From Bradyrhizobium sp. CCGUVB1N3 (GTDB lineage Bacteria; Pseudomonadota; Alphaproteobacteria; Rhizobiales; Xanthobacteraceae), in NCBI RefSeq assembly GCF_024199925.1, contig NZ_JANADR010000001.1:9675501-9739500 (forward strand): a stretch of DNA of 64,000 bases, in the 5' to 3' direction. The stretch's first letter is position 1; every line of letters starts with the position of its first letter. This document shows, in pieces, positions 14,134 through 28,803 of the stretch. The notes beneath the pieces are model-generated. The model was not told the DNA's origin and ran no database searches. It was given only the letters and a program-made list of their open reading frames with translations. Both the position numbers and the translations under genes were made by a program.

Positions 14134-14190
14134 TGGTGCGGGCAGCCGGGTCGAACCGGCACAGCGCTTGCGCACCGAAGGATTTTAAGT
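14134..14190 (-). pseudogene. 3' half of the host tRNA-Leu(UAA) gene (split by the island)
   Basis: On the minus strand this reads from the anticodon loop to the CCA end: core acttaaaat (14190-14182), anticodon-stem 3' strand, variable arm, T-arm gccggttcgacccggc, acceptor 3' strand tgcccgc (14144-14138), then A and CCA (14136-14134). The acceptor strand pairs perfectly with gcgggca at 28803-28797. Joining the two at the 9-bp core gives one normal class II tRNA-Leu with a UAA anticodon. Sequence 5' of the core on this side (tgcaaaaa) does not rebuild the missing half, so this fragment cannot make a tRNA. Confidence 0.9.
14182..14190. repeat. Left attachment-site core (att), 9 bp
   Basis: attttaagt; identical to 28764-28772. 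On the minus strand it is acttaaaat, the anticodon loop of tRNA-Leu(UAA). This is the only sequence duplicated at the two island ends. Confidence 0.85.
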
Positions 14191-14582
14191 TTTTTGCACC
14201 TGAGCTATCTATATGACTTATTTGAATAAATGTCCATCGCCGAACCCTGATGTGTAAGTTTCCGTGTAAGAAATGAGTCCCGGCTTGAAGAATTGTCAGA
14301 CAAATGTGGAAGGAGCTGTGGAAGCAAAATCCTTGCGCAGCGAACGGGCTGGAAGCCTTGACCAGCCGCCACTGTTGGCGGCATTGCCGTTATCGTCTCA
14401 CGTAAGACGATCTACCGAAGCTATGGCTATGACTCTAGGCGTAACTGCCTAACGGATTCTTGCCGCTATTGACGCCCCGGACTCCCTGACTCAGAATTCC
14501 TTCGCATCGCTTTCTGGATGTGTGTTGGAAGGGCCTGTGGTAGGGCCCTTTCTATGTTTTCAGGCGCGAATGGCTGACGACG
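14191..14582. promoter_or_regulatory. Left island end: non-coding, candidate integrase arm-type sites
   Basis: No gene is seen in these 392 bp. gtgtaag occurs at 14252-14258 and 14264-14270; tgtggaag at 14305-14312 and 14317-14324; ttgtcagacaa, an 11-bp palindrome, begins at 14293. The same three words recur near the opposite end (gtgtaaa/gtgtaag at 28661-28675, tgtggaag at 28679-28686, ttgtcagac on the minus strand at 28756-28748). Repeated words confined to both ends are expected for integrase arm sites or excisionase sites. Assignment is inference. Confidence 0.45.
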
Positions 14583-14855
14583 TTAGTGAACGTCAGGCCG
14601 GACCAGATTGAACCCCTCATAGCTGGCGAGACGTGCGCGGTAGTATTCCCGTTCCCGCTCGGCGCCCTCCAGTAGCCCTTTGAACGACTCAAGAATCTCT
14701 TTCTGCTCTGCTTCGGTAAAGGCCGTGGTCGGTTCAGACCAGGTTTCGACGTCCTTCTTGTAGCGTGCGATATTGCTGTCGATAACCGCCAGCCTGGTTC
14801 GCATGTAGGCGAGTTGTTCCGTCCGGTGCTTTTCCAAAAGCTCATCAATGCTCAT
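14583..14855 (-). CDS. Hypothetical island protein, predicted alpha-helical
   Basis: 90 residues from the ATG at 14855 (an in-frame start at 14876 adds seven). The sequence MSIDELLEKHRTEQLAYMRTR onward is rich in Glu, Lys, Arg and Leu with a heptad-like pattern to about residue 80, so a coiled coil is likely. No cysteines in the chosen frame and no catalytic motif are seen. Family not recognised. It lies at the island's left end and may be an accessory DNA-binding or regulatory protein, which is speculative. Confidence 0.55.
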   Translation of the reverse strand: MSIDELLEKHRTEQLAYMRTRLAVIDSNIARYKKDVETWSEPTTAFTEAEQKEILESFKGLLEGAEREREYYRARLASYEGFNLVRPDVH

Positions 14856-14957
14856 GCATTTAGTATGGGGCAGCATAAAGAGAGGTCAAGGCGAGGTGTT
14901 GACGAAAGCCCTGTCTGGACTCACCATACAAATGAGGGGCCTGGTCAAGGGTCCCTT

Positions 14958-15161
14958 CTACTTTTTGGCGCGTGAGTACTTCTTGATGATGCGTGCTCGT
15001 CGCTCTATCGGCGACAATCCTAGGCGATCAAACTCCGCAACCATAGCTTCGGCTTCCTTGCTGGGTTCAATTCCTTCAACCGCGGAGATTTTGGCCCACG
15101 CCTTGCGGCCTACGGTGAAGCCAGCGGGCTTTGAGGAAGGTTTGGGCTTCTTGGTGGCCAT
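14958..15161 (-). CDS. Small basic island protein, hypothetical
   Basis: 67 residues, very basic at both ends (MATKKPKPSSKPAGF at the start and RRARIIKKYSRAKK at the end). The centre GRKAWAKISAVEGIEPSKEA followed by a GLSPIERRARII helix resembles short proteins that are widespread in Rhizobiales genomes and often look like antitoxin or regulator partners; I cannot name the family with confidence. It is upstream of the 90-residue protein on the same strand with a 102-bp gap. Confidence 0.6.
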   Translation of the reverse strand: MATKKPKPSSKPAGFTVGRKAWAKISAVEGIEPSKEAEAMVAEFDRLGLSPIERRARIIKKYSRAKK

Positions 15162-15263
15162 GCTTGCAACCTACGCCGAACGGCTTCTGCTGCCTATGCG
15201 GTTCGGTTTTGACAAAGATTTTTGACAAAACCGTACATCACCTATCGTCCTGTTTCTTGATAT

Positions 15264-16304
15264 TCAAAGACTTGGATCGGCTGACTTCGCCTTGGCCGCA
15301 GGTTTATCTCCCCACCAAACCAGGTTGCCGTTGGCTACATCTAGCAGCCTGAGAAGTGCCTGGTTGGACGGATCTCGAATGAAGACCTGATAGTCGGGCG
15401 CAATTGCTGCCGGGAACGCGACCGCACTCTCAAGTGAAAACATGATGTCGTTGCAGGCCTCGATGGTCTGCAGCACAATATTAGCCAGCCACGGCCGCAG
15501 CGAAGTAAGGGTGGGGTTGTAATAGTGCTCCGGTTTCCAGGAAAAATCCCGGAAGTACCTGGAGCTTGGCTCGACGCAAAAGCCTTTCTCCGTCACGAAA
15601 ATCAGATCAACGCTTGAACCGCCGTGAACAATACCATCCCTCATTGCCCGTAATGACAGGAAGAACGGCGCATGCTTCACGTACACCTCGCTCATCGCCT
15701 GCAGGAGTCCATAATTCTCAACAATCTCTGCCGCTGTCCGAGGGGTCTTATCGTTGAGCACTACCTTCCTGAATGTGTCGGGTAATTTGAACTTCCTCGG
15801 CGCCGGCTTGGCCGTTGCGTCGGTAGGCTGGATACGTTCGTTCCAGAAGTGCGCCATAATCTCCTGCAGGAGATCAAATATCGACCGGGCGATGACGATG
15901 AGATGCTCAACTTCGCTCTGTACGAAGGAGCTGATGAGGTTTTGGTCGATGCTCTCCCGATTTTCATGGAAGTATTCAAGCTTGGCTGCGATCGTTGCCA
16001 TGAGATGGAAATCATCGCAGATACCCGTAGTAAGCTTGAAAACCTCAGGTGAACTCAGGCGCTGCCACATCACATCGACGAACGGGATATGGATGTCATC
16101 AGGCCGAGCTGGCGTTTTCGCCAGGTAGTTCGAGCGAACCACATCAACGACACTGAACTTGACAGGCTGCCCACCAGGACCATCAACCCACTGATTCCAG
16201 GCAGTGCCATCCCAAAGCGGCATTAACAGGATTGTGCGCCCTTGCAGGGCGGCTACGTTAATGTGCGGGAGCTTGGCTAATTCAGCTGGGTTTGCTGTAC
16301 GCAT
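15264..16304 (-). CDS. Hypothetical island protein with an HEPN-like RxxxxH motif
   Basis: 346 residues, no signal peptide. The best functional hint is MRDGIVHGGSSVDL (about residues 229-242): R-D-G-I-V-H fits the Rx4H motif of HEPN ribonucleases, placed after a helical region (LLQAMSEVYVKHAPFFLSLRAM) as in that fold. The rest (LLMPLWDGTAWNQWVDGPGG near the N-terminus) is not recognised. HEPN proteins are frequent effectors in abortive-infection systems, and the neighbours are defence genes, but the fold assignment here rests on one short motif. It is divergent from the truncated gene at 16401, 96 bp away. Confidence 0.7.
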   Translation of the reverse strand: MRTANPAELAKLPHINVAALQGRTILLMPLWDGTAWNQWVDGPGGQPVKFSVVDVVRSNYLAKTPARPDDIHIPFVDVMWQRLSSPEVFKLTTGICDDFHLMATIAAKLEYFHENRESIDQNLISSFVQSEVEHLIVIARSIFDLLQEIMAHFWNERIQPTDATAKPAPRKFKLPDTFRKVVLNDKTPRTAAEIVENYGLLQAMSEVYVKHAPFFLSLRAMRDGIVHGGSSVDLIFVTEKGFCVEPSSRYFRDFSWKPEHYYNPTLTSLRPWLANIVLQTIEACNDIMFSLESAVAFPAAIAPDYQVFIRDPSNQALLRLLDVANGNLVWWGDKPAAKAKSADPSL

Positions 16305-16400
16305 GAGCTTAGGACGTTACTAGGGTTCTGTTCATGCAATAGCGTCGCCTATCTTGGTGAACTTAACAACCTAGCTGACGATTTCTGATAAGCTCAATAC

Positions 16401-17266
16401 ATGCCAAAAAAGAGCGACCCCAAGGACGTCTGGGTGCAGGACGTCGAATTCGTACTGTCGGAATGCGTGCGCATTCAAAAGATCATGTCCGCAGGCAAGC
16501 CAGCAGACTGGATGAAAGAGCTCTCGAACAATGACATGTTGGCTTCGTTGCCGCGCCCCGATCGGGGTATTCTTATCTGTGGTATGGCTGCCTACACTAG
16601 ACTTAGACATCTCGCAGCAACTGCGCTCACACAAAGCGATGCGAAAGGTACAGTCACTCCAGCGAGGGTCTTCGAGGCATTACGCAAGCTCGTCATCCAA
16701 CGGTTCATTTTCGACAATTGGGAGATCGACACCCGAAGAGTAGAAAAGGTAATGGCCGCCGCGGTTAGAGAGGCTAAAAAGAAACGCGCAACCACCACTC
16801 ACTATATCCCGTGCCGGCTGATGTACGCCAAGGATCCTGACACCTTCAACGTCGGGCCCATTACCTTCAGAACAAAGCCTGCATTTAAGAAGGCCATGGG
16901 AAGTCTCTATGAACAATATCTAAAGCAAGAACCATCGACAGCTCGAGATCCTTACTACCTTGATGAAGCCAAGAAATATTACGAGACTTTTAGTTGGATT
17001 GCCGAAGTGCAAATTCAGAACTGCGATGCCGAGATTTCAAAACAAAGGGCAGAACTGGCGGTAACTGCAGCCGTCGATATATTGCATATCGTATTCGGGT
17101 CTTATCATACGAAGAGAATGGCAATCGGTGGCCCTGTTATGGAGAATGACAATCGGGCGCATATGACCTCGTCTGCGGGTTCACTACATGTCTCTCTTTC
17201 TTCCACGTCGACTTCAGCTGTCGGATTTATGGATGGTTGGGGTAAGTTTTTGACTCGCCCTGATAT
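16401..17266 (+). pseudogene. 5' part of a hypothetical defence-type gene, truncated by an IS3 element
   Basis: About 289 native residues from [19 protein letters not shown] up to the IS3 left end at 17267; the frame then runs 76 residues into the IS to a stop at 17495. The block [21 protein letters not shown] (about 133-153) followed by ITFRTKPAF resembles a segment seen in large proteins of unknown function in defence loci. The C-terminal part is absent: the sequence beyond the IS (18588 onward) does not look like its continuation. AT-rich compared with the chromosome. Confidence 0.65.
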
Positions 17267-17316
17267 TGAACCGCCACGGGTTTGCCGGAGGCTCCAACTC
17301 CTGAGAGGATGGAGCC

Positions 17317-17646
17317 ATGACAAGCAAGACGACGAACAAGTTTTCACCCGAGGTCCGGGCTCGTGCGGTTCGGATGGTTCTGGATCATGCGAGCGAGCAC
17401 CCGTCGCGGTGGGCGGCCGTGACCTCGATTGCGGCCAAGATCGGCTGCACACCGCAGACGCTGCACGACTGGGTCAAGAGGGACGAAGTCGATAGCGGAC
17501 ACCGGGCCGGCGTTCCGACCGACATGGCCGAGAAGCTGAAGGCGCTGGAGCGGGAGAACCGTGAGCTTCGGCAGGCGAATGAGATCCTGCGCAAGGCGAG
17601 CGCGTATTTTGCGATGGCGGAGCTCGACCGCCGGTCCAAGCCATGA
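17317..17646 (+). CDS. IS3-family transposase OrfA
   Basis: 109 residues. An N-terminal helix-turn-helix ([20 protein letters not shown], then [19 protein letters not shown]) recognises the IS ends; a C-terminal leucine-zipper-like helix ([20 protein letters not shown]) mediates oligomerisation. The stop overlaps the orfB start as atga at 17643-17646, and orfB is in the -1 frame, so the functional OrfAB transposase would need a -1 frameshift upstream of the overlap. No A-rich slippery heptamer of the usual type stands out. Confidence 0.93.
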
Positions 17647-18548
17647 TCGCCTTCATCGACGATCATCGTGGGGCGCATGGGGTCGAGCCGATCTGCAAGG
17701 TCTTGCCGATCGCCCCTTCGACCTACCACGCCCATGTGGCCAGGCGGCGCGATCCTGCCAGGCTGTCGGCGCGCGCCAGGCAGGACGCTACCCTGAAGAT
17801 CGAGGTTCGGCGGGTGTTCGATGAGAACTTCCGGGTCTATGGCGTGCGCAAGGTCTGGCGGCAGCTCGAGCGGGAAGGCTTCGATGTTGCCCGCTGCACG
17901 GTGGCGCGACTGATGCGGGACATGGGTTTGCAAGGAGTCATCCGCGGCAAACCCGTCAAGACCACGATCAGCGACAAGGCCGCGCCATGCCCGCTGGATC
18001 ACGTCAACCGCCAGTTCAGGGCGCCAAGGCCGAACGTTCTTTGGCTCTCCGACTTCACCTATGTCGCGACCTGGACCGGCTTCGTCTACGTCGCCTTCGT
18101 CATCGATGCCTACGCCCGCAGGATCGTGGGGTGGCGGGTCTCGCGCACGGCGCATGCGGGCTTCGTGCTCGATGCGCTGGAACAGGCCCTGCACGATCGC
18201 CGGCCGGTCCATCGCGGCGGGCTCGTGCACCACAGCGACAGGGGCAGCCAATACGTCTCGATCAAATACACCGAGCGTCTGGCTGAAGCTGGTATCGAAC
18301 CTTCTGTCGGCAGCGTCGGGGACTCCTATGACAACGCTCTCGCCGAAACCATCAACGGCCTCTACAAGGCCGAGGTGATCCATCGGCGCGGGCCATGGCG
18401 CAGCTTCGAGTCCGTCGAGTTCGCGACGCTGGAATGGGTGGACTGGTTCAACAACCGAAGGCTCCTCGAGCCCATCGGCAACATCCCGCCGGCCGAAGCC
18501 GAGCAACGCTACTACGCCATGCTGGAACAACCCGCCATGGCGGCATAA
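17643..18548 (+). CDS. IS3-family transposase OrfB (DDE integrase domain)
   Basis: 301 residues. HTH_21 region near residues 40-95 ([20 protein letters not shown]), then the retroviral-integrase-like core with the catalytic triad visible as SDFTYV (first Asp, about 137), HHSDRGSQY (second Asp) and [11 protein letters not shown] (Glu), followed by [10 protein letters not shown]. Full length and intact, so the element may still be active. Confidence 0.95.
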
Positions 18549-18587
18549 CTTAAACCAAATTGCCTCCGGCAAACCCGGGGCGGTTCA

Positions 18588-18954
18588 AGCCAAGGATCTG
18601 CAACTGCGCTGCGTCGCAGCTAAAGCCGCCAATCCAGAAAGGCGCTTTATTGTTGGGATCGCAATGGACGCCGCCGGCGTGAAAGGTTCATCTGAGGATT
18701 TTGTTTTTATGGATACAGCGGGCTGGACCGCTGAAGAAATCCAGAACGCGCAAAAGATGAGAACGGAGCTTGGATATTTCAAGGAGGGGACCGCAATCAT
18801 GTCTCGGCTCTCAGAGGATGAATATCCAGGGAGTCGGCCTGCGGTTGACGTTCCGAAGCTCGCGAATGAGCTATCTAGCCTGACTGTCTCGGAGTCACTC
18901 CAGCTCGCGGCGATGCTTAAGGACAGGTGGGGGCGGTCGGACTCTGCGACCTGA
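18588..18954 (+). pseudogene. 3' fragment of an unidentified gene, 5' end lost at the IS3 junction
   Basis: The frame is open from inside the IS right end. Native residues begin KDLQLRCVAAKAANPERRF and run to a stop at 18952-18954 (about 121 residues); an internal ATG at 18664 could start a 96-residue product. Features: SSEDFVFMDTAGWTAEEIQ, KMRTELGYFKEGTAIMSRL, and a terminal ELSSLTVSESLQLAAMLKDRW helix. Family not recognised. Because no target duplication flanks the IS, this is probably not the missing end of the gene at 16401. Confidence 0.55.
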
Positions 18955-18980
18955 TTTTGCGGTAGTGGGTATTGCGAAAG

Positions 18981-19006
18981 CCCCGCACCGTTTCCGGTGC
19001 GGGGCA
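18981..19006. terminator. Hairpin after the truncated gene, possibly bidirectional terminator
   Basis: Perfect 10-bp stem gccccgcacc / ggtgcggggc with a 6-nt loop, 27 bp past the stop at 18954. No U tract follows on the plus strand; on the minus strand it is followed by tttcgc, so it may instead end the small gene at 19154-19342. Confidence 0.5.
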
Positions 19007-19153
19007 ACCGACTCTGCACCTTGCGGGTCATCAGCTCTCAACGGACTTCGACCACCGGTATGAGGGTGGTTTCCCTTGTCACGCCAGCGTGCCTGGCCGC
19101 TGCTCCGGGAAGGAATCGCACAGAGCCTGGTCGCTCGTTGCGTCAGGCTCCGG

Positions 19154-19342
19154 TCAGGAGCTTCCTTCCTTGCGCTCGCGGATGACGAGCCGGCCATTGG
19201 CGGGTAGGGCGACGAGTTCAACGTTGAACCCCTTGCCGTCGTCGTGAGGCCAGACTCCGCCGATCTTCGTCCAGAACGCACTATCGCCTTCACCGGTCAC
19301 GACGAAGGCCTCGTGACTCGGCTTCTTTGCTTTCGCAGCCAT
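19154..19342 (-). CDS. Small conserved hypothetical protein
   Basis: 62 residues from the ATG at 19342, chosen because gggag lies 6 nt upstream. The sequence SAFWTKIGGVWPHDDGKGFN, followed by VELVALPANGRLVIRERKE, forms a compact predicted beta-rich fold. Very similar short proteins are common on alphaproteobacterial integrative elements and plasmids, often near transfer or partition genes; function unknown. Stands alone between the IS3-damaged region and the Mrr-STAND gene. Confidence 0.7.
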   Translation of the reverse strand: MAAKAKKPSHEAFVVTGEGDSAFWTKIGGVWPHDDGKGFNVELVALPANGRLVIRERKEGSS

Positions 19343-19670
19343 TGCATTCTCCCATTGGTGAGCCGCCAGGGCGAGCCGTCGGGGAGACAAAAACGTTATC
19401 CGCCGGACATGCCGGCAAGCGGGTGGAAGGATGCTTACCTAAGCGCCTTGTTCGGAGAATTTGCAGATGCGAGAAAGCGCTGCCTGACGAGGTGCCGGTG
19501 CAACGGTTTGTAGGACGGTTGTGAGGGAATTGCCGGCCGCGGCACTAGCGGATAGGGGGACGACCATCGTGTTCGCAGGAGGGCGATATTCCTTTCGTCG
19601 GGGCAAGCTCTGCTGAGCTGTCGGCGCTTCAACGCTTTCCTTAATTGTTGGCTTTGCGCTACCCTAGGGT
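19343..19670. other. Gene-free stretch upstream of the split Mrr-STAND gene
   Basis: 328 bp with no coding pattern, repeat or hairpin that I can support. It presumably holds the promoter of the gene starting at 19671. Confidence 0.4.
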
Positions 19671-19770
19671 ATGTCCTACGATTTTTTCAATTTGTCCCCC
19701 GCCGACTTCGAAGACTTAGCCGCTGACCTGGTTGGTCGGGAGCTTGGAATCCGGTTTGAGGTGTTTGCCG

Positions 19771-19779
19771 CAGGCCCGG
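19771..19779. repeat. IS256 target-site duplication, left copy
   Basis: caggcccgg, identical to 21177-21185 directly after the IS right end. Confidence 0.9.
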
Positions 19780-21176
19780 GAGCTATGCGGGAAACTGGGT
19801 GATGACGGACTGAGATAGGCGGCGTATCGAGGCGGGTGTCGAGCCTGCCAGAACCTCTCAAGGAGAGCGATACGCCATGAACGAGACTAGCAATATTGTT
19901 GCCCTTCGTCAGCCCGACGATATCGACGATCCACTGACCAATATTCTGCGAGCTGGTGCTCGGCAACTTCTGGCGCAGGCCGTGGAGGTCGAAGTCGAGA
20001 CGTTTCTTGCCACGGTGAAGGATTTGAAGCTGGCCGACGGGCGCGCCCGTGTCGTGCGACATGGTTACGGCCCGGCGCGGACGATTGCGACCGGCATCGG
20101 CCCGGTCGAAGTGGCGCGGGCAAAGATTCGCGACCGTGGAGCGGCCAGCGATGGCGAGCGGATCCGGTTCAGCTCGGCGATCCTGCCGCTGTGGGCGCGG
20201 CGCACCCGGAGCCTGGATGCGCTGTTGCCGGTGCTGTATCTGCGCGGCATCTCGACCGGCGATTTCCGGGAGGCACTGACGGCCCTGCTGGGCAAGGACG
20301 CGCCAAACCTGTCGCCTGCGGTGGTTTCTCGGCTGACGGCCGAGTGGCAGGGCGAGTACGAGCGCTGGCAGAAGCGCGATCTGTCGGCGCGACGCTACGT
20401 GTATGTGTGGGCCGATGGCGTCTTCCTGCAGGCGCGCATGGAAGACCACGGCGAATGCATGCTGGTGCTGATCGGCGCGACGCCGGAAGGCAAGAAGGAG
20501 CTGATCGGCTTTCAGGTCGGCGTCCGCGAGAGCGCGCAGAGCTGGCGTGAGCTCCTGATCGACGTGAAGCAGCGCGGGTTGCAAATCGCCCCTGAAATTG
20601 CCGTTGGTGACGGCGCGCTCGGCTTCTGGAAGGCGCTTGACGAGATCTGTCCCGGCACGCGGCACCAGCGCTGCTGGGTGCACAAGACCGTCAACGTCCT
20701 GGACAAGGTCCCGCTCTCGGTGCAGGCCAACATGAAGAAGGACCTGCGCGAGGTCTATTGGGCGCCGAACCGGGCGGCCGCCGAAGCGGCGATCGACATC
20801 TTCGCCCAGAAATATCGCGCCAAGTACGGCCGGGCGGTCGAATGCCTCGCCAAGGACCGCGACGCACTGCTGGCCTTCTACGACTTCCCTGCCGAGCATT
20901 GGGATCACTTGCGCACGACCAACCCCATCGAAAGCGTGTTCGCGACCGTGCGGCACAGAACCGTGCGGACGAAAGGATCGCTGTCGGCAACGACCGCCAG
21001 GCTGATGGTGTTCAAGCTGGTTATCGCCGCATCAAAAACCTGGCGGCGGCTCAAAGGCACAAATCAGTTGCCGAAGATCATCGCAGGTGTCAGATTCAAC
21101 GACGGCATCGAGGTCATCCAAATGCCGGCAACCCACGCCGCCTGATCACCTCGTCACCCAAAATTCTGCATAGCTC
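19780..21176. mobile_element. IS256-family insertion sequence
   Basis: 1397 bp. Left end gagctatgcgggaaactggg, right end (reverse complement) gagctatgcagaattttggg: imperfect terminal inverted repeats. A 9-bp target duplication caggcccgg flanks it on both sides, so this insertion is simple and fairly recent. It interrupts the Mrr-STAND gene. Confidence 0.92.
19877..21145 (+). CDS. IS256-family (mutator-type) transposase
   Basis: 422 residues, the normal length. N-terminal region LLAQAVEVEVETFL with the RHGYGPARTI block; catalytic residues are visible as YVWADGVFL (first Asp), AVGDGALGFWKAL (second Asp) and TTNPIESVFATVRHRT (Glu), with the family marker RCWVHKTVNVLDKVP. Intact and apparently functional; preceded by aaggagagcg before the ATG. 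Confidence 0.95.
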   Translation: MNETSNIVALRQPDDIDDPLTNILRAGARQLLAQAVEVEVETFLATVKDLKLADGRARVVRHGYGPARTIATGIGPVEVARAKIRDRGAASDGERIRFSSAILPLWARRTRSLDALLPVLYLRGISTGDFREALTALLGKDAPNLSPAVVSRLTAEWQGEYERWQKRDLSARRYVYVWADGVFLQARMEDHGECMLVLIGATPEGKKELIGFQVGVRESAQSWRELLIDVKQRGLQIAPEIAVGDGALGFWKALDEICPGTRHQRCWVHKTVNVLDKVPLSVQANMKKDLREVYWAPNRAAAEAAIDIFAQKYRAKYGRAVECLAKDRDALLAFYDFPAEHWDHLRTTNPIESVFATVRHRTVRTKGSLSATTARLMVFKLVIAASKTWRRLKGTNQLPKIIAGVRFNDGIEVIQMPATHAA

Positions 21177-23379
21177 CAGGCCCGGATGGGGGAGTAGACG
21201 GTCGACATACCAAAGGCGGAGCCTCCACTGTTCTCCAGGCCAAGCACTATGCGAGGTCGCCCTATACGGCCCTCAAGTCGCAGATGACCCGTGAGCGCGC
21301 ATCGATCGATAAGCTTCGCCCCTCACGGTACATATTGGCCACCTCGTGCTCCATCACTCCGCCCAACAAGGCAGAGCTGAAATCCATCCTCGGCCCTACC
21401 GTCCTGAATGACTCAGATATTAAGGGCCCAGGTGATCTGAACGGACTACTTAGAAGCTTTCCCGACATCGAAAAGGCCCACATCAAGCTCTGGCTCTCAA
21501 GCGCCGCAATGCTTGAACGCCTGGTTCACTCCTCTGCGCACACGTTCAACGCGCTGACGAAAACTGAGATCGAAGCGAAGATTCGGGTATTCGCACCTAA
21601 TCCGAGCTTCGACGAAGCATTGGGCATCCTGGAGAAGAGGCACGTCCTCATCATCTCGGGACCGCCGGGAGTCGGTAAGACGACTTTAGCCGAGATGCTG
21701 GCCTATGCGTATATCGGTAAAGACTGGGAGCTGGTTGCTATTCGTAGCCTGGACGACGGGCTCAAGTTTCTCGATGACACCAAAAAGCAGGTGTTCTTCT
21801 TCGACGATTTTCTGGGCAAGGTTGCCTTGGACAAGCAGGCGCTGGCTCACAAGGATTCTGATCTAGCGCGATTTATCAAGAGAGTCAGAACGTCTGCCAA
21901 TGCACGTTTCATTCTCACAACACGAGCCTACATTTTTGAGGAGGCGCGCCGCGTTTCGGAGCACCTTGCTGATGAACGACTGGACGTCACGAAATACGTT
22001 CTAGATGTCGGGCTTTATACGCGCCGCATCAAAGCGCGCATTCTGTATAACCATCTGCTGATCGCGGGAACGCCCCAAGCCTACATCGCGGCCCTGATTG
22101 ATAGCGGGGGCCTCAAGAAAATTGTCGACCATAAGAACTACAATCCCCGGGTCATCGAGTGGATGACCGACGCGGAGCACATCAAAGACATCGATCCTCT
22201 GTCATACCCCGCAGCGTTCCTGGCCGGCCTCGCGAACCCCTCGGCTCTCTGGGATACTGCCTTCCGCACCCATATATCAAAAGCGTGCCAGCATCTTCTC
22301 TTCACGCTATTTTTCAGCTCGCAGTATGGCGCTCAGATCGCTGAATTAAGGGCCGCGTACGACAGCCTGCACTCGCAGCTCTGTTCTGCGTTTGGCGATT
22401 CATGGAATCCGAAGGACTTTGAAGAGGCGCTGAAGATTCTTGAAGGCGGCTTCATCGCGATCAACAATCAGGCCGTCAATTTCATCAATCCCTCTCTGCG
22501 CGATTATCTGAATGGGTACCTTCAAGATACCTCCATACTTCTGGAGTGTGCGAAAGCTGCGCAGCAGACCGATTGGGCTCGTAACGTCTGGGAATACTCC
22601 AGGGGATCGGATAAAGAAGACAGAAGCAAGCTCGCGCTGGCCTCACTGGATGTCGCCAACGCCTTTAAGACCCTCCCGGTTTGGTCGCGGACACTGAACA
22701 ACGGGATCACCTACATCAGCGCGGTTGGCATTTCGAGTACCGACCGGATAAGCCTGCTTTTGGAATGGTGGTCTGCAACGAAGGATCAGCGGTTCTGGGA
22801 TGTCGCTATCGCACTGGCCGAAGCCCCGATAGAGGGCTTGGACTCATGGCGCGATGGACCAGAAGCGATAGAATTAATTGGCAAGCTCAGAGACGGGTTC
22901 TACTTTGAAGATCTTCCCGATGCTGAAAAGCTTGCGGATCGTATTGAGGTCGCGGCGATCAAAATGATCCGGGGTCCAATAAACATTGACGAGCTAGAAA
23001 AGATCGCTGACGCCATGGAAAATTGGTCGAGCGCGCTCAGCGACGGGATTACTGATGCTTTGGACGCAGCAATACGGGACCAATTTAGGGAGGTTGCAAC
23101 CGCGGTGGCGGACATCGACTCGGAATCAACGCTGAAAGATCACATCGCGTCGCTCAAGAAGCTAGGTGAGCGTGTGGCACTGGAACCGGTGCAGGTGGAA
23201 TTGGCAGTATCTTACGTGGATGATCGAATCAACGAAGTCGCTGAAGCTGCGGAAAATACTCGCTCGTCTTCGCCCGACCTCCGCACGTCTAGAGGGCCTG
23301 AGCAGTTTGATGATGTTGCCCTCAAGGGACTGTTCACCCAGCTTCTCCAGTAGGGAGAAGACGACCCCAAGGCAAAGCG

Positions 23380-25863
23380 CTAGGTCTCGATTTCGACGAC
23401 GTTCTCAATGCCGATTTGAACAGCAACAGGCGTATAGATGTCCACGTTCTCGTCGGGCGTCGAAATCGACACGATCAACGTGTAGCGCGCCTTCTTGTCC
23501 ACACGCTTTTCGGCGGGACGGGTACGCCACCACCCAAGTGTGGGGAGCACGGCGATATGGTTTCGTTGTGCGAGTTCAGCGGCAGAGCCGCGCCAGATGT
23601 TGGAATGTATGGACCCGTTGGTCGGGCCACGGACGCCTAGCTCCCAGCGCCCGGTCTCGCCAGCGTGGGTTTCGTCATAGTCATCCTCGCGATCGTGCGC
23701 GTTGATGCGGAGCTTGAAATCGTCCAGGGTCTCTGTCGCGCGAATAACCCTGAAGCGGAGCCCATGCGAAGGATATCCGTATTTGCGGTCCCAGCCGCGC
23801 TCTCCGGGGCTAGGCTCGACGAAGTACGACAACGTCACGCGCATTTCCACTGGCGTGTCGAACGGCAAGGCAAGCAGCGCGTCGCGCGGCCAAGGCAACT
23901 CGTGAAATTTGATATCCTTAGTCTTGATGGAGCCGTCCCTGTCCTTGAAGAAAGGTTGGAGACTATCCTCCGCAATCAATGTCAAGGCGTTGCCGGCGCT
24001 GTAGAACAAGCGCTCGGGATCAGGCGCTCCATAACCGAACGTGCGGAGCATGCGTTCCGGGTCGAGACGCCCCTGTCTATCTACGGCGCGCGCCCTCATG
24101 GCGTCGGTCCACCTTGCGCTATGGACGAGCAATCCACGGACAGTTTCGGGCGAATAGTCAGGGTAACGAGCCATAACCCGCGCTGCGAGATTGGCCGCCA
24201 GTGCAGCGGCGGCGCTAGTGTCGTGAAACTCCACAAATGGCGCTTCACCAGCCGCGAACTCGTTGCTCGTTGTGAGCAACTGCAACTCGGGCAGAAACAA
24301 AGGATCGCCGTCGCCTGGGGGCCGTCCCATGTTGCCGGCCTCCATGACGATGTCGGGCTTATATGGGGTCTTCGTCGAGCGCGGCCAGGTCATGGACGTT
24401 TTGCTGGAAGGAGCAAGGTCGCCGCGCGACGCCAGCGGATTCCAACCGAAGTTGACATTGTCATCGATGAAAATCCGATCGGTGTAGCCACCGACCGTCA
24501 AGGCGTTCCACGATTGGCCGGGGTCCTCGATCGAGGAGGCCTCGTTGTAGGCAGGATAGTCTCTCCGGGCTTCGGGCGGCGTGTTGCCAGCCGAGAGAAT
24601 GATAAGCCGACGCGTGTCGTTAATGGCGCCATACGCGAGATTGTCGACAGCTGCTGACCATGAAGTGGGCCGGCCTCTCTCGCGAGCCTCCGCCGAAATA
24701 GCCATACAGAATGCCTTCCGGCGAGCGGCGTCGATTTCGAGCCGCGATATGCCCTCGATTGTTACCGCGCCGTAGAGCTCCGGCCGGTGCGGGTCGGGAG
24801 CGTGATAGAGCTTCAGCGATTGGACACCGTGGGTGATCTCTATCGGGCCGCTACCGGCAAAGAGAGGGGTGAGGTCGCCATAGATAGCGAGCCCGGCCAT
24901 TTGCGTGCCATGCCCGTGCCGATGGCTGTCGTGACCGCCCCAACCGGGCTTAAAACCGTCAACGTCAGTTTCAGCGACAATCGGCGCAAGCAGCGGGTGG
25001 GCGCGGTTGACGCCCGTATCTAGTAGCGCGACGACGGGTGAGCCGCCCGGCAAGGCGCCAAGCCGCTGGATGAACGCGGCAGAAAGGGCGTGCTGGTCGG
25101 CGGCCGGCTGCATGGAATAGAAGTCCGCAGTCACCTTCGCTTTGCGGACTTCGGCGATAACGCCGAGGACATCGGAGGACAGCGCGAGCTGTTCGCGTGT
25201 GCCTCGTACAAGCACAACGGTACGATCGATGAACGACAGGTCGTTTGAGATGACCTCATAGCCGAAATTGGGCGCCGCCTCGCGGAGGACCGCGCTCGGC
25301 GAGTTCTCTCCCTGCATCGCCGAGCGAAGCCAGACTTCCCACGTAATAGCGGTGTTGGCTGCTGGATAAAGCTGGGGCGTATCCGTCCAAAGCTCCGAGA
25401 GTGTCGCCAGCTTGATGTTGGTGATGCTTTCGACCAGCTTTCTATTATCGCGCTCATCGCCGTCTTCGGCGTCGCGATACTTCTCGAATTTGCGAAGCAG
25501 AATTTGAATCTTATCGTCGGGGACGTGTATCGTGGCGTAGGTACGAGCCGTTTCTTCGTCGCGCGTAACCGCCAGCAACTGAATTTTGCTGCGGCGTAGG
25601 TCGAGGCTTTCGAAGGCAAGCGGAAAGCCCGGCTCGCTTTCAAAAGTCAGCGTCAGCCCTGGTGATTCATAGAAGCCGTTTCCGACCTGGGTAGGAAAAG
25701 GGCCGCGCGAGTTTTGCGCGGTCTGCAACGCGTTGATGACGGTCGCTGCATGCTGGGCACGGTCACGGTCAGGAGTGTCAAATTTCGGAGACCGACCACG
25801 ATCAGCGGTATAACGCTCCGTTCCCGCAGCGTCGACGAAGAGCAAATGGGGATACCGTGCCAA
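23380..25863 (-). CDS. ietS: Subtilisin-like S8 serine protease of the IetAS defence/stability system
   Basis: 827 residues. The catalytic triad is complete: Asp282 in VVALLDTGVN, His318 in HRHGHGTQMAGL, Ser550 in FHDTSAAAALAA, with the oxyanion Asn427 in LSAGN. About 260 residues precede the protease domain and 230 follow it. There is no signal peptide, so it acts in the cytoplasm. It lies 12 bp downstream of the AAA+ ATPase gene on the same strand. This pair matches IetA/IetS, first described as a plasmid stability/incompatibility-related pair on the Agrobacterium Ti plasmid and later shown to act against phages. The family match comes from domain content and order, not from a search. Confidence 0.85.
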   Translation of the reverse strand: MARYPHLLFVDAAGTERYTADRGRSPKFDTPDRDRAQHAATVINALQTAQNSRGPFPTQVGNGFYESPGLTLTFESEPGFPLAFESLDLRRSKIQLLAVTRDEETARTYATIHVPDDKIQILLRKFEKYRDAEDGDERDNRKLVESITNIKLATLSELWTDTPQLYPAANTAITWEVWLRSAMQGENSPSAVLREAAPNFGYEVISNDLSFIDRTVVLVRGTREQLALSSDVLGVIAEVRKAKVTADFYSMQPAADQHALSAAFIQRLGALPGGSPVVALLDTGVNRAHPLLAPIVAETDVDGFKPGWGGHDSHRHGHGTQMAGLAIYGDLTPLFAGSGPIEITHGVQSLKLYHAPDPHRPELYGAVTIEGISRLEIDAARRKAFCMAISAEARERGRPTSWSAAVDNLAYGAINDTRRLIILSAGNTPPEARRDYPAYNEASSIEDPGQSWNALTVGGYTDRIFIDDNVNFGWNPLASRGDLAPSSKTSMTWPRSTKTPYKPDIVMEAGNMGRPPGDGDPLFLPELQLLTTSNEFAAGEAPFVEFHDTSAAAALAANLAARVMARYPDYSPETVRGLLVHSARWTDAMRARAVDRQGRLDPERMLRTFGYGAPDPERLFYSAGNALTLIAEDSLQPFFKDRDGSIKTKDIKFHELPWPRDALLALPFDTPVEMRVTLSYFVEPSPGERGWDRKYGYPSHGLRFRVIRATETLDDFKLRINAHDREDDYDETHAGETGRWELGVRGPTNGSIHSNIWRGSAAELAQRNHIAVLPTLGWWRTRPAEKRVDKKARYTLIVSISTPDENVDIYTPVAVQIGIENVVEIET

Positions 25864-25875
25864 GCGTTGTCGCTC

Positions 25876-26871
25876 TTACTTGCGGTTGACGTTCCCGTGC
25901 TGCAGGGCCGCCTTGCGCTCATCGATCGCGGAGAAAAGGTCTTTCTGCGTCAATGCATGTCCTTCGATCAACGCGTGTTTGAGCGCGTCTTGCGTCGCGC
26001 GTGTCACATCCGCGTAGCTCAGACCCTTGGCAAACGTCGCGAGCTTGGCCCAATCGATTTTCCCGCTCGTCTTCGCGCCCGCAATCTTGGCTTCAAATGC
26101 AGTACGAATTTCCTTGGTGGTGGGAAGTGAGTATTGAACGATGTCGTCAAAACGACGGAAGAGAGCCTTGTCCAAAATAGTGGGATGGTTCGTCGCAGCA
26201 ATGATCACGCTATCGGAAGCGTCTTGCTCGACCATTTGAAGGAAGCTGTTCACGACGCGGCGTATCTCACCAACGTCGTTGCCGAGACCCCGTTCTGAAC
26301 CAATGCTGTCGAACTCGTCGAATAGATAAACCGCACGCGTCTGCGCAATAGCGTCGAAGATCAACCGCAGTTTGGCGGCGGTCTCGCCCATGTATCGGGT
26401 GATGAGGCGATCGAGACGTACGACGAAAAGGGGCAGGGCGAGTTCACCCGCGATAGCCGATGCGGTCATCGTCTTCCCGGTGCCTGGCGGTCCGACCAGC
26501 AGTAACTTTTTGCGGGGAGCCAGACCGTGGGCGCGAATGTCACGAATGTTTTTGTGCTCACGGACGACGCGATGCAAAATGCTCTTGGTCTTCGCCGTGA
26601 GGACCAGGTCTCCCAAATGGACTTTGGGATAGGTGACGGTGAGTAGATCCGCGATTTCGCCGCGTGGCTTGGCGAGGGGGATCGGCGACGGTCCGGGGCT
26701 TGGGACGCGAGCGCGCGACTGGTCGATCAGTTCGCGGAGTTCTTCGGCCAGCTTGCCATGTCCGACGCGAGCCTCGCTCGCCGCAATCTGCATCGCGATG
26801 GAGTGGAATTGCGCGTCGTCGCCCGCAGCGAAGGCTTTTATGAGCGCTTTGAGCTGATCGGCGCTAGGCAT
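25876..26871 (-). CDS. ietA: AAA+ ATPase of the IetAS system
   Basis: 331 residues from ATG at 26871; a GTG at 26892 would add seven, but homologous proteins start with a similar MPSADQLKALIKAF segment. N-terminal helical region (1-65), then an FtsH/proteasomal-type AAA+ module: Walker A GPPGTGKT (127-134), pore-loop-like ITRYMGET, Walker B VYLFDEFDS (181-189), sensor 1 AATNHP (226-231) and arginine finger FRRFDD (238-243). It probably senses or unfolds a target and controls the protease encoded next to it. The two genes form an operon downstream of the replacement tRNA. Confidence 0.87.
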   Translation of the reverse strand: MPSADQLKALIKAFAAGDDAQFHSIAMQIAASEARVGHGKLAEELRELIDQSRARVPSPGPSPIPLAKPRGEIADLLTVTYPKVHLGDLVLTAKTKSILHRVVREHKNIRDIRAHGLAPRKKLLLVGPPGTGKTMTASAIAGELALPLFVVRLDRLITRYMGETAAKLRLIFDAIAQTRAVYLFDEFDSIGSERGLGNDVGEIRRVVNSFLQMVEQDASDSVIIAATNHPTILDKALFRRFDDIVQYSLPTTKEIRTAFEAKIAGAKTSGKIDWAKLATFAKGLSYADVTRATQDALKHALIEGHALTQKDLFSAIDERKAALQHGNVNRK

Positions 26872-26965
26872 GGGGCATACTTTGTTGGTCACTGACGAGT
26901 CTAAGCGTAGCTTTCAGATTCTGGCAACTAAAAGTGGCAGAGAGGGTATATTTGTCGTTGATAGA

Positions 26966-27264
26966 TGGTGCGGACGGCCGGACTCGAACCGGCACGGGCA
27001 ATGCCCAACGGATTTTCGTACCAACTACGACTTTCGTCGCCGCCAACCTGGCGTTTGTGGTCTGGACTATCCCTTCACCTTGGCGTTGTCGCTTTAGGTG
27101 CTGCCCGTCTAGTCTCTACACCTTCCCCCAGGATTTAGGGGCTTGGCTCGGGATTACCAGCAAAGGCTTCCCCGAATTTGAGCAGTTCTGCATCCCGGGT
27201 TTCCCGCAGGAGCACTCAATTTTTGGCTTAAGTCCGTTGCGTCTACCAATTTCGCCACGCCCGC
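26966..27264 (-). tRNA. tRNA-Leu(UAA) interrupted by a group I intron; island-borne replacement gene
   Basis: 5' exon 27264-27230 (acceptor gcgggcg, D-arm tggcgaaattggtagacgca, anticodon-stem start acggactt). 3' exon 27016-26966 (aaaatccgttgggc, long variable arm, T-arm gccggttcgagtccggc, acceptor cgtccgc, A, encoded CCA). The 7-bp acceptor pairs with one G-U; the anticodon stem acgga/tccgt is perfect; the loop cttaaaa gives anticodon UAA. It is clearly not a recent copy of the split host gene: acceptor, variable arm and anticodon stem differ, with compensatory changes (G7-C66 here, A7-T66 in the host gene). It starts 54 bp after the integrase stop on the same strand. Confidence 0.93.
27017..27229 (-). 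ncRNA. Group I intron (IC3-like) in the anticodon loop of tRNA-Leu(UAA)
   Basis: 213 nt inserted after the second U of the anticodon loop (cu-U|AAaa), the same position as the classic cyanobacterial and plastid tRNA-Leu(UAA) intron. Core elements in order: P caaattcggggaagcc (27180-27165), Q aatcccgagccaagcccc (27155-27138), R ggtgtagagactagacgggc (27122-27103), S ggtgaagggatagtccaga (27079-27061). P7 pairs gacta with tagtc. P1 pairs exon acuu with intron gagu (intron nt 13-16), giving a U-G wobble at the splice site, and the intron ends in G. The core closely resembles the Azoarcus tRNA-Ile and Anabaena tRNA-Leu introns. No homing endonuclease is encoded. Confidence 0.95.
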
Positions 27265-27318
27265 ATGCCGGGCCCTTCATAACCCGTGTCGGTCCGGTCG
27301 CCAAGGTGTCAGGTGGGG

Positions 27319-28641
27319 TCAGTGCGGTTTGCGACGGGTGTAATTCTTGCCGGTCGGGCGCAAGCGATTTTTCGGAGCCGCAGGCTTTGGTGGCGGGGGC
27401 GACTGCGGCGCAACCTTGTTTTCTTCGTTCCGGGGAACGCGTTTGACGTTGATGGCGGCTGCGCTCAACTGGTTCTTGATGTGCGAGGCGTAGAATTTCT
27501 CGATCATCTCGACGCTGGTGCGGCAGTTCTTGGCAACCTGGTAGATGTCAGCACCTTCCATGAGACGCAGGCAGATGTAGGTATGCCGCAGGCTGTAGGC
27601 CGTGCGGCGCTGCCCTTCGCGGTCGAACTTGAGGTTTTCCTCCTCAAGGATGTTGTTGAACAGCACATGCTGGTCGTTTGGGAAAATGCGATCAGTCGGC
27701 TGGGCCTTGTTGCGCTTTCGCAACCTGAAGAAGGGCATGACGGCGCTGGGCATGCTCTTGCAGTAGCCGACACCGCGCTTGCCGCGCACTTCGATTTCAA
27801 GAATGCGCTCGTCGGTTTCGCGATCCTTGACCACGGTCACGTCGCGATATTCCAGCCGCTTCGCCTCGTCAGGCCGCAGGCCTGTGTTGGCCATGAAGAT
27901 GATGAAGTCATACAGTTCCTGGCCGTGGTAGCGATAGCGCTCCTTTTTGGGATCGTCCGCGCGCTTCGCGGCGGCGAGGTAAAGCTGTCTGTATTCAGTC
28001 GGTGAGAACCAGGCGCGATGGGAAATCTTCCCATTGCTGCGATAGGGCTGCGACATGTCGGGCAGGCTGGCGAGCCAGTCGTGCCGCATGGCTGTCTTCA
28101 AGGTCTGGCGCAGCGCGACCATCTCTTGGTGAACAGTGCCGCGGGCAGGCGGCTTGCCGCGTTTTTCTTTCGATTTCTCGATGCGGTCGATGCGGTATTC
28201 CGCTATCGCGCCAGATGTGACCTGCGAGAGTGGTTTGTCCCCGAAGAAGGGGACGAGGTAGTTGCGCAGGCGCCTCTGGTGGCCTGCGGTGTAGATAGGG
28301 CTGCGTTGCCCCTCGGTGAGAACCGGAAATTCGCGGAGGAATTGTTCTGCGGCGTCCTTGAAAGTCTTTTCGGCGTTGACGGGGACCAGCTTGCCCAGTT
28401 CGCCGCGAATGTGCTTGCCGCGCAATTCAAGATACCACTCCTCGGCAAATTGCTTTGCAGCGGAGAATCCTTCGAGCTTGGTGCTCGCTCTGTGATTTCT
28501 GCCGGAGACATAAGCGGCAACCTGCCAGTGCTTGCTGTCGTTGCTGCGCTTGTAGATGTAGCACTTGCCGCCCATCAGTTCGTAGCGCTCGATCGTGCCG
28601 TCCTTCGCCGGTGGTTGCTGTTCTTGAGTTGCCGTCTCCAT
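27319..28641 (-). CDS. Tyrosine recombinase (island integrase)
   Basis: 440 residues. An N-terminal arm-binding-type region (to about 90) and SAM-like core-binding domain (about 90-190) precede the catalytic domain: Arg256 in NTGLRPDEAKRL, Lys288 in VRGKRGVGYCK, YSLRHTY (Arg352-His353; the first box II His is Tyr, as in many phage integrases) and nucleophile Tyr384 in EMIEKFYASH. The tail is Pro/Lys/Arg-rich. The gene lies 122 bp inside the right att core and points away from it, toward the replacement tRNA. The split host tRNA's promoter lies upstream on the same strand and could add to its expression. Confidence 0.93.
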   Translation of the reverse strand: METATQEQQPPAKDGTIERYELMGGKCYIYKRSNDSKHWQVAAYVSGRNHRASTKLEGFSAAKQFAEEWYLELRGKHIRGELGKLVPVNAEKTFKDAAEQFLREFPVLTEGQRSPIYTAGHQRRLRNYLVPFFGDKPLSQVTSGAIAEYRIDRIEKSKEKRGKPPARGTVHQEMVALRQTLKTAMRHDWLASLPDMSQPYRSNGKISHRAWFSPTEYRQLYLAAAKRADDPKKERYRYHGQELYDFIIFMANTGLRPDEAKRLEYRDVTVVKDRETDERILEIEVRGKRGVGYCKSMPSAVMPFFRLRKRNKAQPTDRIFPNDQHVLFNNILEEENLKFDREGQRRTAYSLRHTYICLRLMEGADIYQVAKNCRTSVEMIEKFYASHIKNQLSAAAINVKRVPRNEENKVAPQSPPPPKPAAPKNRLRPTGKNYTRRKPH

Positions 28642-28763
28642 CGGGAAATCATCCCTTTTTGTGTAAATGTGTAAGCCTTGTGGAAGGGTATTGCAAATCT
28701 AGATTTTCGTCAATCTATTTGATTTTACTGAGTAATTTTTCATTTTAGTCTGACAAAGAAAAA
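28642..28763 (-). promoter_or_regulatory. Right island end: integrase promoter and candidate arm sites
   Basis: On the minus strand ttgacg (28713-28708) is followed after 17 nt by taccct (28690-28685), a plausible sigma-70-type promoter about 45 bp before the integrase ATG at 28641. The words gtgtaaa/gtgtaag (28661-28675) and tgtggaag (28679-28686) overlap this promoter and recur at the left end, so integrase bound to arm sites could repress its own promoter. Inference from position. Confidence 0.4.
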
Positions 28764-28772
28764 ATTTTAAGT
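28764..28772. repeat. Right attachment-site core (att), 9 bp
   Basis: attttaagt, identical to 14182-14190. Inside the island it is preceded by an A-rich run (agaaaaa), matching the T-rich run that follows the left core, so a recombined circular attP would be nearly symmetric around the core. Confidence 0.85.
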
Positions 28773-28803
28773 CCCTTGCGTCTACCAATTCCGCCATGCC
28801 CGC
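28764..28803 (-). pseudogene. 5' half of the host tRNA-Leu(UAA) gene (split by the island)
   Basis: On the minus strand: acceptor gcgggca (28803-28797), D-arm tggcggaattggtagacgca, anticodon-stem strand aggga and loop, ending at the core acttaaaat. Beyond the core the sequence becomes ttttttctttg, which cannot form the other half of the anticodon stem. Its partner is at 14134-14190. Directly upstream (28804-28821) is an 18-bp palindrome, ttgatcc-aacg-ggatcaa, in the native tRNA promoter region. Confidence 0.92.

What the first reader, a model, noticed from the sequence alone, without database searches (positions are those of the whole stretch)
14182..28772. Island that breaks a tRNA-Leu(UAA), replaces it, and shields the replacement with a group I intron
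The sequence shows a host tRNA-Leu(UAA) cut in its anticodon loop by an island bounded by the 9-bp core attttaagt, with neither end rebuilding the tRNA. It also shows a full, divergent tRNA-Leu(UAA) inside the island, next to the integrase, with a group I intron at the very base step that corresponds to the core. Integrases that target tRNA genes usually carry the missing part so the gene is restored; here restoration is replaced by supply of a spare. The inference is a three-part system: destructive integrase, replacement tRNA, and intron as an att mask that stops the integrase from using the spare as a third att site (which would delete 26966-28763 or capture related elements).
Basis: partly seen in the sequence, partly recalled or inferred. 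Interest (0 to 1): 0.97.

Follow-up and report, generated by a model that had tools for sequence, protein, structure and literature searches.

The report
Island brings a shielded spare tRNA
A mobile DNA island wrecks an essential tRNA gene of its bacterial host and pays for it with a spare copy that is altered exactly where the island's own integrase would cut; related islands in other bacteria do the same, with an intron or with a small sequence change.

Summary
A 14.6-kb island sits in the anticodon loop of a host tRNA-Leu(UAA). A 9-bp core (ATTTTAAGT) lies at both ends and neither junction rebuilds the gene. Beside the integrase is a complete tRNA-Leu(UAA) split at U34/A35 by a group I intron. 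No uninterrupted tRNA-Leu(UAA) was found in the genome, and the broken 3' half has decayed further.

It is one of a family. Of 81 loci with this integrase, 46 have a spare tRNA within 500 bp downstream on the same strand; in 40 of them the broken target is visible too. In 37 of those 40 the spare differs from the target at the crossover core: intron (11), C32U (17), pair 30:40 (8) or pair 31:39 (1). On the integrase tree the kind of change switches 12 times by parsimony.

Destructive integration with a rescuing tRNA is already published for phages as tRNA-dependent lysogeny. New here: a non-phage island family, the intron, and the regularity that the spare is altered at the integrase's own site. 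That this blocks recombination is inferred, not shown; 3 of 40 spares and some phage spares lack it.

The parts
14134..14190 (-). 3' half of the host tRNA-Leu(UAA), attL side, decayed (one base fewer in the T arm and one anticodon-stem difference against L262)
14182..14190 (.). core ATTTTAAGT, left copy (tRNA positions 31-39)
14252..14269 (-). two arm-like repeats (TTACAC) near the left end
15264..26892 (.). cargo: IetA-like ATPase (25876-26892 -), IetS-like S8 peptidase (23380-25863 -), nSTAND3/PDC-S73-like protein (21284-23353 +), IS256 (19877-21145 +), IS3 (17317-18548 +), two proteins without hits (16401-17495 +, 15264-16304 -)
26966..27264 (-). spare tRNA-Leu(UAA), complete, with intron
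   Evidence: ARAGORN, intron mode
27017..27229 (-). group I intron, 213 nt, between U34 and A35; last base G
27276..27304 (-). promoter-like TTGGCG-17-TATGAA in the gap between int and the spare tRNA
   Evidence: 8 of 12 matches; below the 9-of-12 threshold, which did not report it
27319..28641 (-). tyrosine integrase, 440 aa
   Evidence: PHROG 1, integrase, 2.6e-30
28661..28674 (-). two arm-like repeats (TTACAC) upstream of int
28764..28772 (.). core ATTTTAAGT, right copy
28764..28803 (-). 5' half of the host tRNA-Leu(UAA), attR side

Best explanation
The island is a site-specific integrative element whose tyrosine integrase crosses over in the anticodon loop of tRNA-Leu(UAA). Its attP shares only about 9 bp with the tRNA, so integration destroys the gene (shown by sequence). 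The element carries its own tRNA-Leu(UAA) directly after the integrase gene, probably with its own promoter, which keeps UUA decoding going (no uninterrupted copy found: shown; function: inferred). The spare would itself be an att site: crossover with the neighbouring attR would delete the integrase, and a second element could insert into it and kill the cell. The spare therefore carries a tRNA-compatible change in the crossover site: here a self-splicing intron that splits the overlap in DNA but vanishes in RNA; in relatives C32U or a changed pair 30:40 or 31:39 (the changes are shown; that they block recombination is inferred from the overlap-homology rule for tyrosine integrases). Once the native gene decays the host cannot lose the spare; spares without an integrase stand at or next to the native locus in some relatives.
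For: Anatomy and empty site. No uninterrupted Leu(UAA) found in the genome. Co-occurrence: 46 of 81 loci. Target versus spare: 37 of 40 differ within 30-38. Pairs whose 5' halves are identical except for the change: L120/L121, L123, L274 (C32U) and L124 (intron). Near-identical integrases (L133, L142, L143, L148, L151) attack stems of different sequence while their spare always has U32. Kind of change switches 12 times by parsimony over 42 rows of a quick tree. U32 in 18 of 28 intronless Leu(CAA) spares against 20 of 155 host genes that fit two strict patterns, p = 3.6e-8, relatedness not corrected. Later, separate samples: all 6 spares with a visible target are changed (L274; L276, L277, L278, L283, L282). 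Promoter-like sequence before 46 spares: mean 8.0 matches, shuffled 6.1. Published phages: Gaia, Fionnbharth and LeBron spares also differ in or next to the loop.
Against: L117, L158 and L150 have spares unchanged in 30-38. Phages Krueger, Chaser and Gabriela carry spares with GACTTTTAATC, the core seen in the Krueger and Chaser attP; plasmids from Chaser and Gabriela still give transformants (PMC10865867, section 9), so an unchanged spare is not fatal. U32 occurs in host genes without this integrase within 1.5 kb (0 of 20 adjacent). Stem changes are not clustered on the tree (10 changes, shuffled mean 10.5) and some integrases tolerate stem variation, so a stem change alone may not mask. Two other intron copies exist in the genome. 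No splicing, expression or recombination data.
Confidence: 0.74

Rival explanations
1. The spare is real, but its differences from the target are incidental: it was picked up from other bacteria, and the intron is an ordinary resident of anticodon loops.
For: Group I introns in bacterial tRNAs are known at this position (recalled). U32 exists in about 13% of class host genes that fit the two patterns (20 of 155). Some phage rescue tRNAs are unchanged at the core.
Against: Spares otherwise identical to the target in the 5' half but changed at the core (L120/L121, L123, L124, L274). Different kinds of change in closely placed integrases (L096/L104; L107 against L099/L106; L124 against L145/L156). 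U32 enrichment.
Confidence: 0.2
2. The change guards mainly against other elements (exclusion of competitors at the same tRNA), not against the element's own integrase.
For: Related elements L106 and L099 attack opposite forms of pair 30:40 and each supplies the other form. In archaea introns are proposed to bar other elements (PMC3293823, passages).
Against: The change is made against the element's own target in 37 of 40 cases; competitors with the same core would give the same pattern, so the two are hard to separate.
Confidence: 0.12
3. A classical tRNA-restoring island lost its restoring half by decay, and the intron-bearing tRNA is chance cargo.
For: Classical members exist in the same integrase family (18 of 81 loci).
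Against: The same order int-tRNA in 46 loci on one strand; only 2 changes between replacers and classical members over 63 rows; open integrase frame and arm-like repeats at both ends in the window.
Confidence: 0.03

Closest known systems
tRNA-dependent lysogeny of actinobacteriophages (Guerrero-Bustamante and Hatfull 2024, PMC10865867; abstract, sections 6, 9, 10, 11 and passages read)
   Same: Tyrosine integrase, core of 8-17 bp in a tRNA gene, no rebuilt tRNA, element-borne tRNA of the same isotype that rescues the host; in Gaia a tRNA-Leu(CAA) downstream of int.
   Different: There temperate phages. In the parts read there is no intron-bearing rescue tRNA (the word intron occurs once in the text, in a passage not shown to me) and no rule on how the phage tRNA escapes the integrase, only a speculation that a plasmid tRNA gene served as attB in mixed colonies (section 9). 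Here non-phage islands, mostly alphaproteobacterial, with no relative of the integrase at 1e-10 among 50,697 phage records, and an intron or core change in 37 of 40 spares.
Prophage Lj965 of Lactobacillus johnsonii (named in the discussion of PMC10865867; original papers not seen)
   Same: Reported not to rebuild the tRNA and to code for a cognate tRNA.
   Different: A prophage of a Gram-positive; nothing seen on an intron or core change.
tRNA introns as protection of att sites in archaea (Randau and Soll 2008, not read; Sugahara et al. 2012, PMC3293823, passages read)
   Same: An intron in the att site of a tRNA gene is proposed to stop further integration and to help the resident element.
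   Different: Archaeal introns in the host target gene; here a group I intron in the element's own spare, with other changes at the same place in related elements.
Element with reversed tRNA orientation (Zhao and Williams 2002; title seen in a reference list; paper not held)
   Different: There the element is said to rebuild the gene (recalled); here it is not rebuilt.
Group I introns of bacterial tRNA-Leu(UAA) (cyanobacterial type, recalled)
   Same: Insertion between U34 and A35, Rfam RF00028.
   Different: Carried by mobile islands next to an integrase.

Membership tests
tRNA-dependent integration (tRNA-dependent lysogeny) | tyrosine integrase acting in a tRNA gene with a short core | tested here: met
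   PHROG 1 integrase 2.6e-30; 9-bp core
tRNA-dependent integration (tRNA-dependent lysogeny) | neither junction rebuilds the tRNA | tested here: met
[quoted passage not shown]
tRNA-dependent integration (tRNA-dependent lysogeny) | host has no other functional gene of that isotype | tested here: inconclusive
   no uninterrupted copy found; other intron copies exist: C2:101094 (A31-C39 mismatch) and C1:7609034 (U27-U43 mismatch)
tRNA-dependent integration (tRNA-dependent lysogeny) | spare tRNA needed for survival of integrants | not testable with these tools
   -
tRNA-dependent integration (tRNA-dependent lysogeny) | element is a temperate phage | tested here: not met
   no phage structural gene among the nine island proteins scanned; 0 of 50,697 phage records match the integrase at 1e-10; 1 IMG/VR contig at 38% identity
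Group I intron | covariance model match over gathering score | tested here: met
   57.2 against 50 bits
Group I intron | U before the 5' splice site and terminal G | tested here: met
   exon ends CTT, intron ends TACG
Group I intron | self-splicing | not testable with these tools
   -
Classical tRNA-restoring island | element sequence restores the tRNA | tested here: not met
IetAS defence (cargo) | adjacent IetA ATPase and IetS subtilase | tested here: met
   (IetA 1.5e-75, IetS 3.9e-40); NCBIfam equivalog cut-offs not reached

The most novel reading that the evidence does not exclude
Self-immunity of the spare is a general tendency of destructive integrators: an element that breaks a tRNA gene and supplies a substitute is under selection to make the substitute a non-substrate of its own integrase. 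Evolution has solved this repeatedly with different tRNA-neutral edits: a group I intron, a swap of nucleotide 32 (in either direction), or a switch of pair 30:40 or 31:39. The group I intron then has a selectable function, as a mask present in DNA and absent in RNA. Phage records point the same way in part: the spares of Fionnbharth, LeBron and Gaia are changed, while those of Gabriela and Chaser, whose plasmids gave mixed colonies that the authors tentatively ascribe to tandem integration into the plasmid tRNA, are unchanged; Krueger and Faith1 are also unchanged in the loop, with no colony data seen.
Probability: 0.6. Interest if true: 0.9.

Novelty: new variant of a known kind. Interest (0 to 1): 0.82.

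Why it matters
It gives a bacterial group I intron a plausible selective role, explains how an element can carry a copy of its own target, and turns an old proposal (tRNA introns guard att sites) into a testable one: natural pairs such as L123 or L124 differ from the target, over the 5' half, by one base or one intron. It also suggests elements that make themselves hard to lose, because the native tRNA decays while the spare is kept, and a route by which an essential host tRNA gene can be replaced.

Tried and rejected
C32U as an element-only mark: rejected, 20 of 385 class genomes have it in a gene with no such integrase within 1.5 kb. The intron as the only mask: rejected. A phage origin: no hit in 50,697 phage records. 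Solved structures: no informative hit. Pfam and NCBIfam gave no family for the integrase. RNA folding of the whole spare gave z = -2.07, 7 of 200 shuffles as good: weak. A first genus pattern was too strict (103 of 242) and was replaced by a wider one (208 of 242). One intron tree omitted the native copies because of a regular expression and was redone without L124. In one search L155 (read out of frame) was left out of the tree, and L117, L158 and L150 out of the count of changes. In some searches the expression found the L107 spare at a wrong place; its true reading is. Baudelaire, the phage with uniform colonies, was not among the 60 rows shown in either or 111 (215 records match), so that prediction is untested. 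The attP of Gabriela and LeBron and the host gene of M. smegmatis were not looked at; the host core is inferred from other attP sites. Paper searches: (1 paper; 0; 0; 1; 11; 1; 15 of 26 listed; 0; 15 of 54 listed), 87 (15 of 20 listed). Apart from PMC10865867, no title or abstract start in those listings mentions a rescue tRNA carried by an integrating element, and none mentions an intron-bearing or core-altered one; only open-licence papers are held, and I read parts of four: PMC6563490, PMC8371274, PMC3293823 (passages) and PMC10865867.
Full report
What is there. On the minus strand a host tRNA-Leu(UAA) is cut in its anticodon loop. Its 5' half lies at 28764-28803 and its 3' half at 14134-14190, and the 9-bp core ATTTTAAGT (tRNA positions 31-39) stands at both ends. 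ARAGORN in plain mode finds no tRNA in the window. L262, a genome of the same genus, has the intact gene between both matching flanks. Joined on paper, the window's halves have one base fewer in the T arm than L262 and a stem difference, so even clean excision would probably not give back a normal tRNA. The genus is inferred to be Bradyrhizobium: contigs of same-genus handles have the lengths of named Bradyrhizobium contigs (157745, 288695 and 402731 bases).

Ends of the element. TTACAC on the integrase strand occurs five times in 64 kb: twice upstream of int, twice near the left end, once inside int; the other strand has none. These look like arm-type integrase sites on both sides of attP. 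In the 200 bp upstream of int, 48 of the 80 fetched loci have two or more such repeats (TWRCACA), against 8 of 1600 random pieces of the same loci.

The spare. 26966-27264 is a complete tRNA-Leu(UAA) with a 213-nt intron between U34 and A35 (Rfam RF00028). For 46 loci with a spare downstream of the integrase, the 70 bp before it were scored for a promoter: mean 8.0 of 12 matches against 6.1 in shuffles (one of the 46, L107, was scored at a wrong place). The window's own is TTGGCG-17-TATGAA, 8 of 12, below the threshold of the consensus scanner.

The host depends on intron copies. The genome (10.44 Mb, 3 contigs) has 51 tRNA hits; the Leu anticodons found are CAA, TAG, CAG and GAG. Intron-bearing copies: the window; C2:101094 (96% identical, integrase in two pieces); C1:7609034 (86%, integrase in pieces with a stop); and a fragment at C1:7672458. 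In 242 genomes of the genus an uninterrupted Leu(UAA) matches in 208. Of the 34 without, 28 have a full-length intron copy; the six others are G006, G034, G126, G164, G219 and G237, of which G034, G164 and G219 are at most 80% complete. Of the 208 with it, 8 have a full-length intron copy and 2 more a truncated one. This is a hand tally; only three candidates per genome were scored. Fisher p = 1e-22 (computed with 10), relatedness not corrected.

The family. The integrase finds 80 loci in named genomes (the best 80 of 151), mostly alphaproteobacterial, some in Acidobacteria. With the window that makes 81. 46 have a spare tRNA within 500 bp downstream on the same strand: 13 with intron, 28 intronless Leu(CAA), 1 intronless Leu(UAA), 3 Ser(CGA), 1 Leu(UAG). 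18 are classical, with a tRNA or tRNA 3' end upstream (ARAGORN: 11 tRNA-Met, 2 tRNA-Arg; 5 seen only as a 3' end) and no spare. 9 have a broken 5' half but no spare nearby (one of them, L152, ends about 200 bp after int). 8 show neither (two of these start at a contig end). Classes were assigned by me. Several rows are near copies (L120/L121, L136/L137, L111-L113, L087/L088), so the counts are not independent. L220 and L226 of the genus set are the same contigs as L082 and L081 and were not counted again.

Target against spare. In 40 of the 46 the broken target is visible too. Within positions 30-38 the spare is interrupted by an intron in 11, has U32 where the target has C32 in 17, has a switched pair 30:40 in 8 (6 Leu, 2 Ser) and a changed pair 31:39 in 1 (L159). 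Three show no change there: L117 and L158 (changes at 27-29 only) and L150 (28 only). Not in the 40: L084, L119 and L154, whose target half was not recognised (L119 has an upstream sequence resembling a tRNA with both halves whose acceptor strands do not pair), and L086, L091 and L094, whose upstream site looks like a free attP; against that site their spares are switched at 30:40 or 31:39. Later, separate samples: L274 (IMG/VR, 38% identical integrase; only C32U in the 5' half) and the class draw. There 14 of 385 genomes have the integrase at E <= 1e-40; of 15 places outside the own genome 5 have a spare (L276, L277, L278, L283 with Leu(UAA) and intron, L283 running off its contig; L282 with Leu(UAG), 31:39), 7 are classical, L275 has a 5' half-like sequence but no spare found, L286 is a fragment and L289 shows no tRNA. 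So 6 of 6 spares with a visible target are changed.

Why this looks like masking. (1) Pairs that differ in the 5' half only at the core: L120/L121, L123, L274 by C32U; L124 by its intron. (2) L133, L142, L143, L148 and L151 have almost the same integrase and attack stems of different sequence, but their spare always has U32, so nucleotide 32 is what separates spare from targets. (3) By parsimony the kind of change switches 12 times over 42 rows of a quick tree, with different kinds in closely placed rows (L096 intron, L104 U32; L107 intron, L099 and L106 stem; L124 intron, L145 U32, L156 stem, where starred branches force at least 6, 7 and 6 changes for intron, U32 and stem). (4) U32 is present in 18 of 28 intronless Leu(CAA) spares and in 20 of 155 class host genes; the host patterns fix the neighbouring pairs, which the spares need not share, so the comparison is not like for like. 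Host U32 genes are not near this integrase, 0 of 20. (5) The 7-bp overlap of tRNA-targeting integrases matches the anticodon loop (PMC8371274, passages), and overlap mismatches are typically strongly deleterious (PMC10865867); exceptions (CTnDOT, NBU1) are named there.

Against it. Three of 40 spares are unchanged at 30-38. Of the phage spares examined, Krueger and Chaser keep the GACTTTTAATC of their attP; Gabriela has the same core (its attP was not fetched); Faith1 keeps the loop (its attP has G31). Fionnbharth (31:39), LeBron (31:39, against the core of the other phages) and Gaia (C32 against U32 in attP and in the host 3' half seen through Courthouse) are changed. The paper reports mixed colony size for Gabriela and Chaser plasmids and speculates about tandem integration into the plasmid tRNA, and uniform colonies for Baudelaire (section 9); the Baudelaire record was not found.

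After the integration. In 14 genomes an intron-bearing Leu(UAA) with the host stem (AGGGA) stands at the native locus, judged by the upstream flank in 14 and by the downstream flank too in 10, without this integrase within 3 kb (L231, L233-L237, L239-L242, L245-L247, L267). In others the element-type tRNA stands there without the integrase: L216, L227, L228 (both flanks), L217, L218, L225 (upstream flank). In the intron tree L244, which has an integrase remnant of another branch, lies inside the native group, so some native copies may be leftovers of elements rather than direct intron gains; this is open.

What is known. Destructive integration with a rescuing tRNA is published as tRNA-dependent lysogeny (PMC10865867), with a Lactobacillus prophage named as an earlier candidate. 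A review says in passing that tRNA genes are restored in all integration events (PMC8371274). Introns as att protection were proposed for archaea (PMC3293823). I therefore file the finding as a new variant of a known kind: island-borne, with a spare altered at the integrase's own site, in this case by a group I intron.

Cargo. The island carries an IetA/IetS-like pair and a PDC-S73-like nSTAND protein, so it is probably a defence island; two insertion sequences lie inside.

Noticed in passing
window 21284-26892: Cargo looks like an IetAS anti-phage pair plus a PDC-S73-like nSTAND protein.
   Followed up: partly
window 17601-17717: ALIL pseudoknot of the IS3 element (Rfam 115.5 bits).
   Followed up: no
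L124:7914-8229: Intron, probably group I, in a tRNA-Leu(CAA), apparently between U33 and C34, in a Rhodospirillaceae MAG (ARAGORN; not checked with Rfam).
   Followed up: partly
L147, L150, L160: The same arrangement with tRNA-Ser(CGA): broken 5' half upstream of int, spare with strong promoter-like sequence downstream.
   Followed up: partly
L159, L282: Leu(UAG) replacers in which the broken tRNA half faces the other way relative to int.
   Followed up: partly
L099 and L106: Related integrases with mirror-image target and spare at pair 30:40; each one's spare has the form the other attacks.
   Followed up: no
L093, L136, L137, L146: Leu(CAA) genes with U32 about 2 to 9 kb downstream of int instead of next to it; L144 has a C32 gene there, perhaps native.
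   Followed up: partly
L013 upstream of 9029 (G000:C2): The second copy of the element on the 348-kb contig ends in a degenerate core inside other sequence, perhaps a secondary attachment site.
   Followed up: no
L119, upstream of int: A sequence resembling both halves of a tRNA-Leu(UAA), with acceptor strands that do not pair, lies where other elements have only the 5' half.
   Followed up: no
L294, L296 (phages Chaser, Gabriela): Rescue tRNA-Lys genes with the core GACTTTTAATC in the two phages whose plasmids gave mixed colonies in the published work.
   Followed up: partly
L249 (G190:C44): An intact Leu(UAA) and a decayed intron copy about 1.3 kb apart, native upstream flank, no integrase found.
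   Followed up: no
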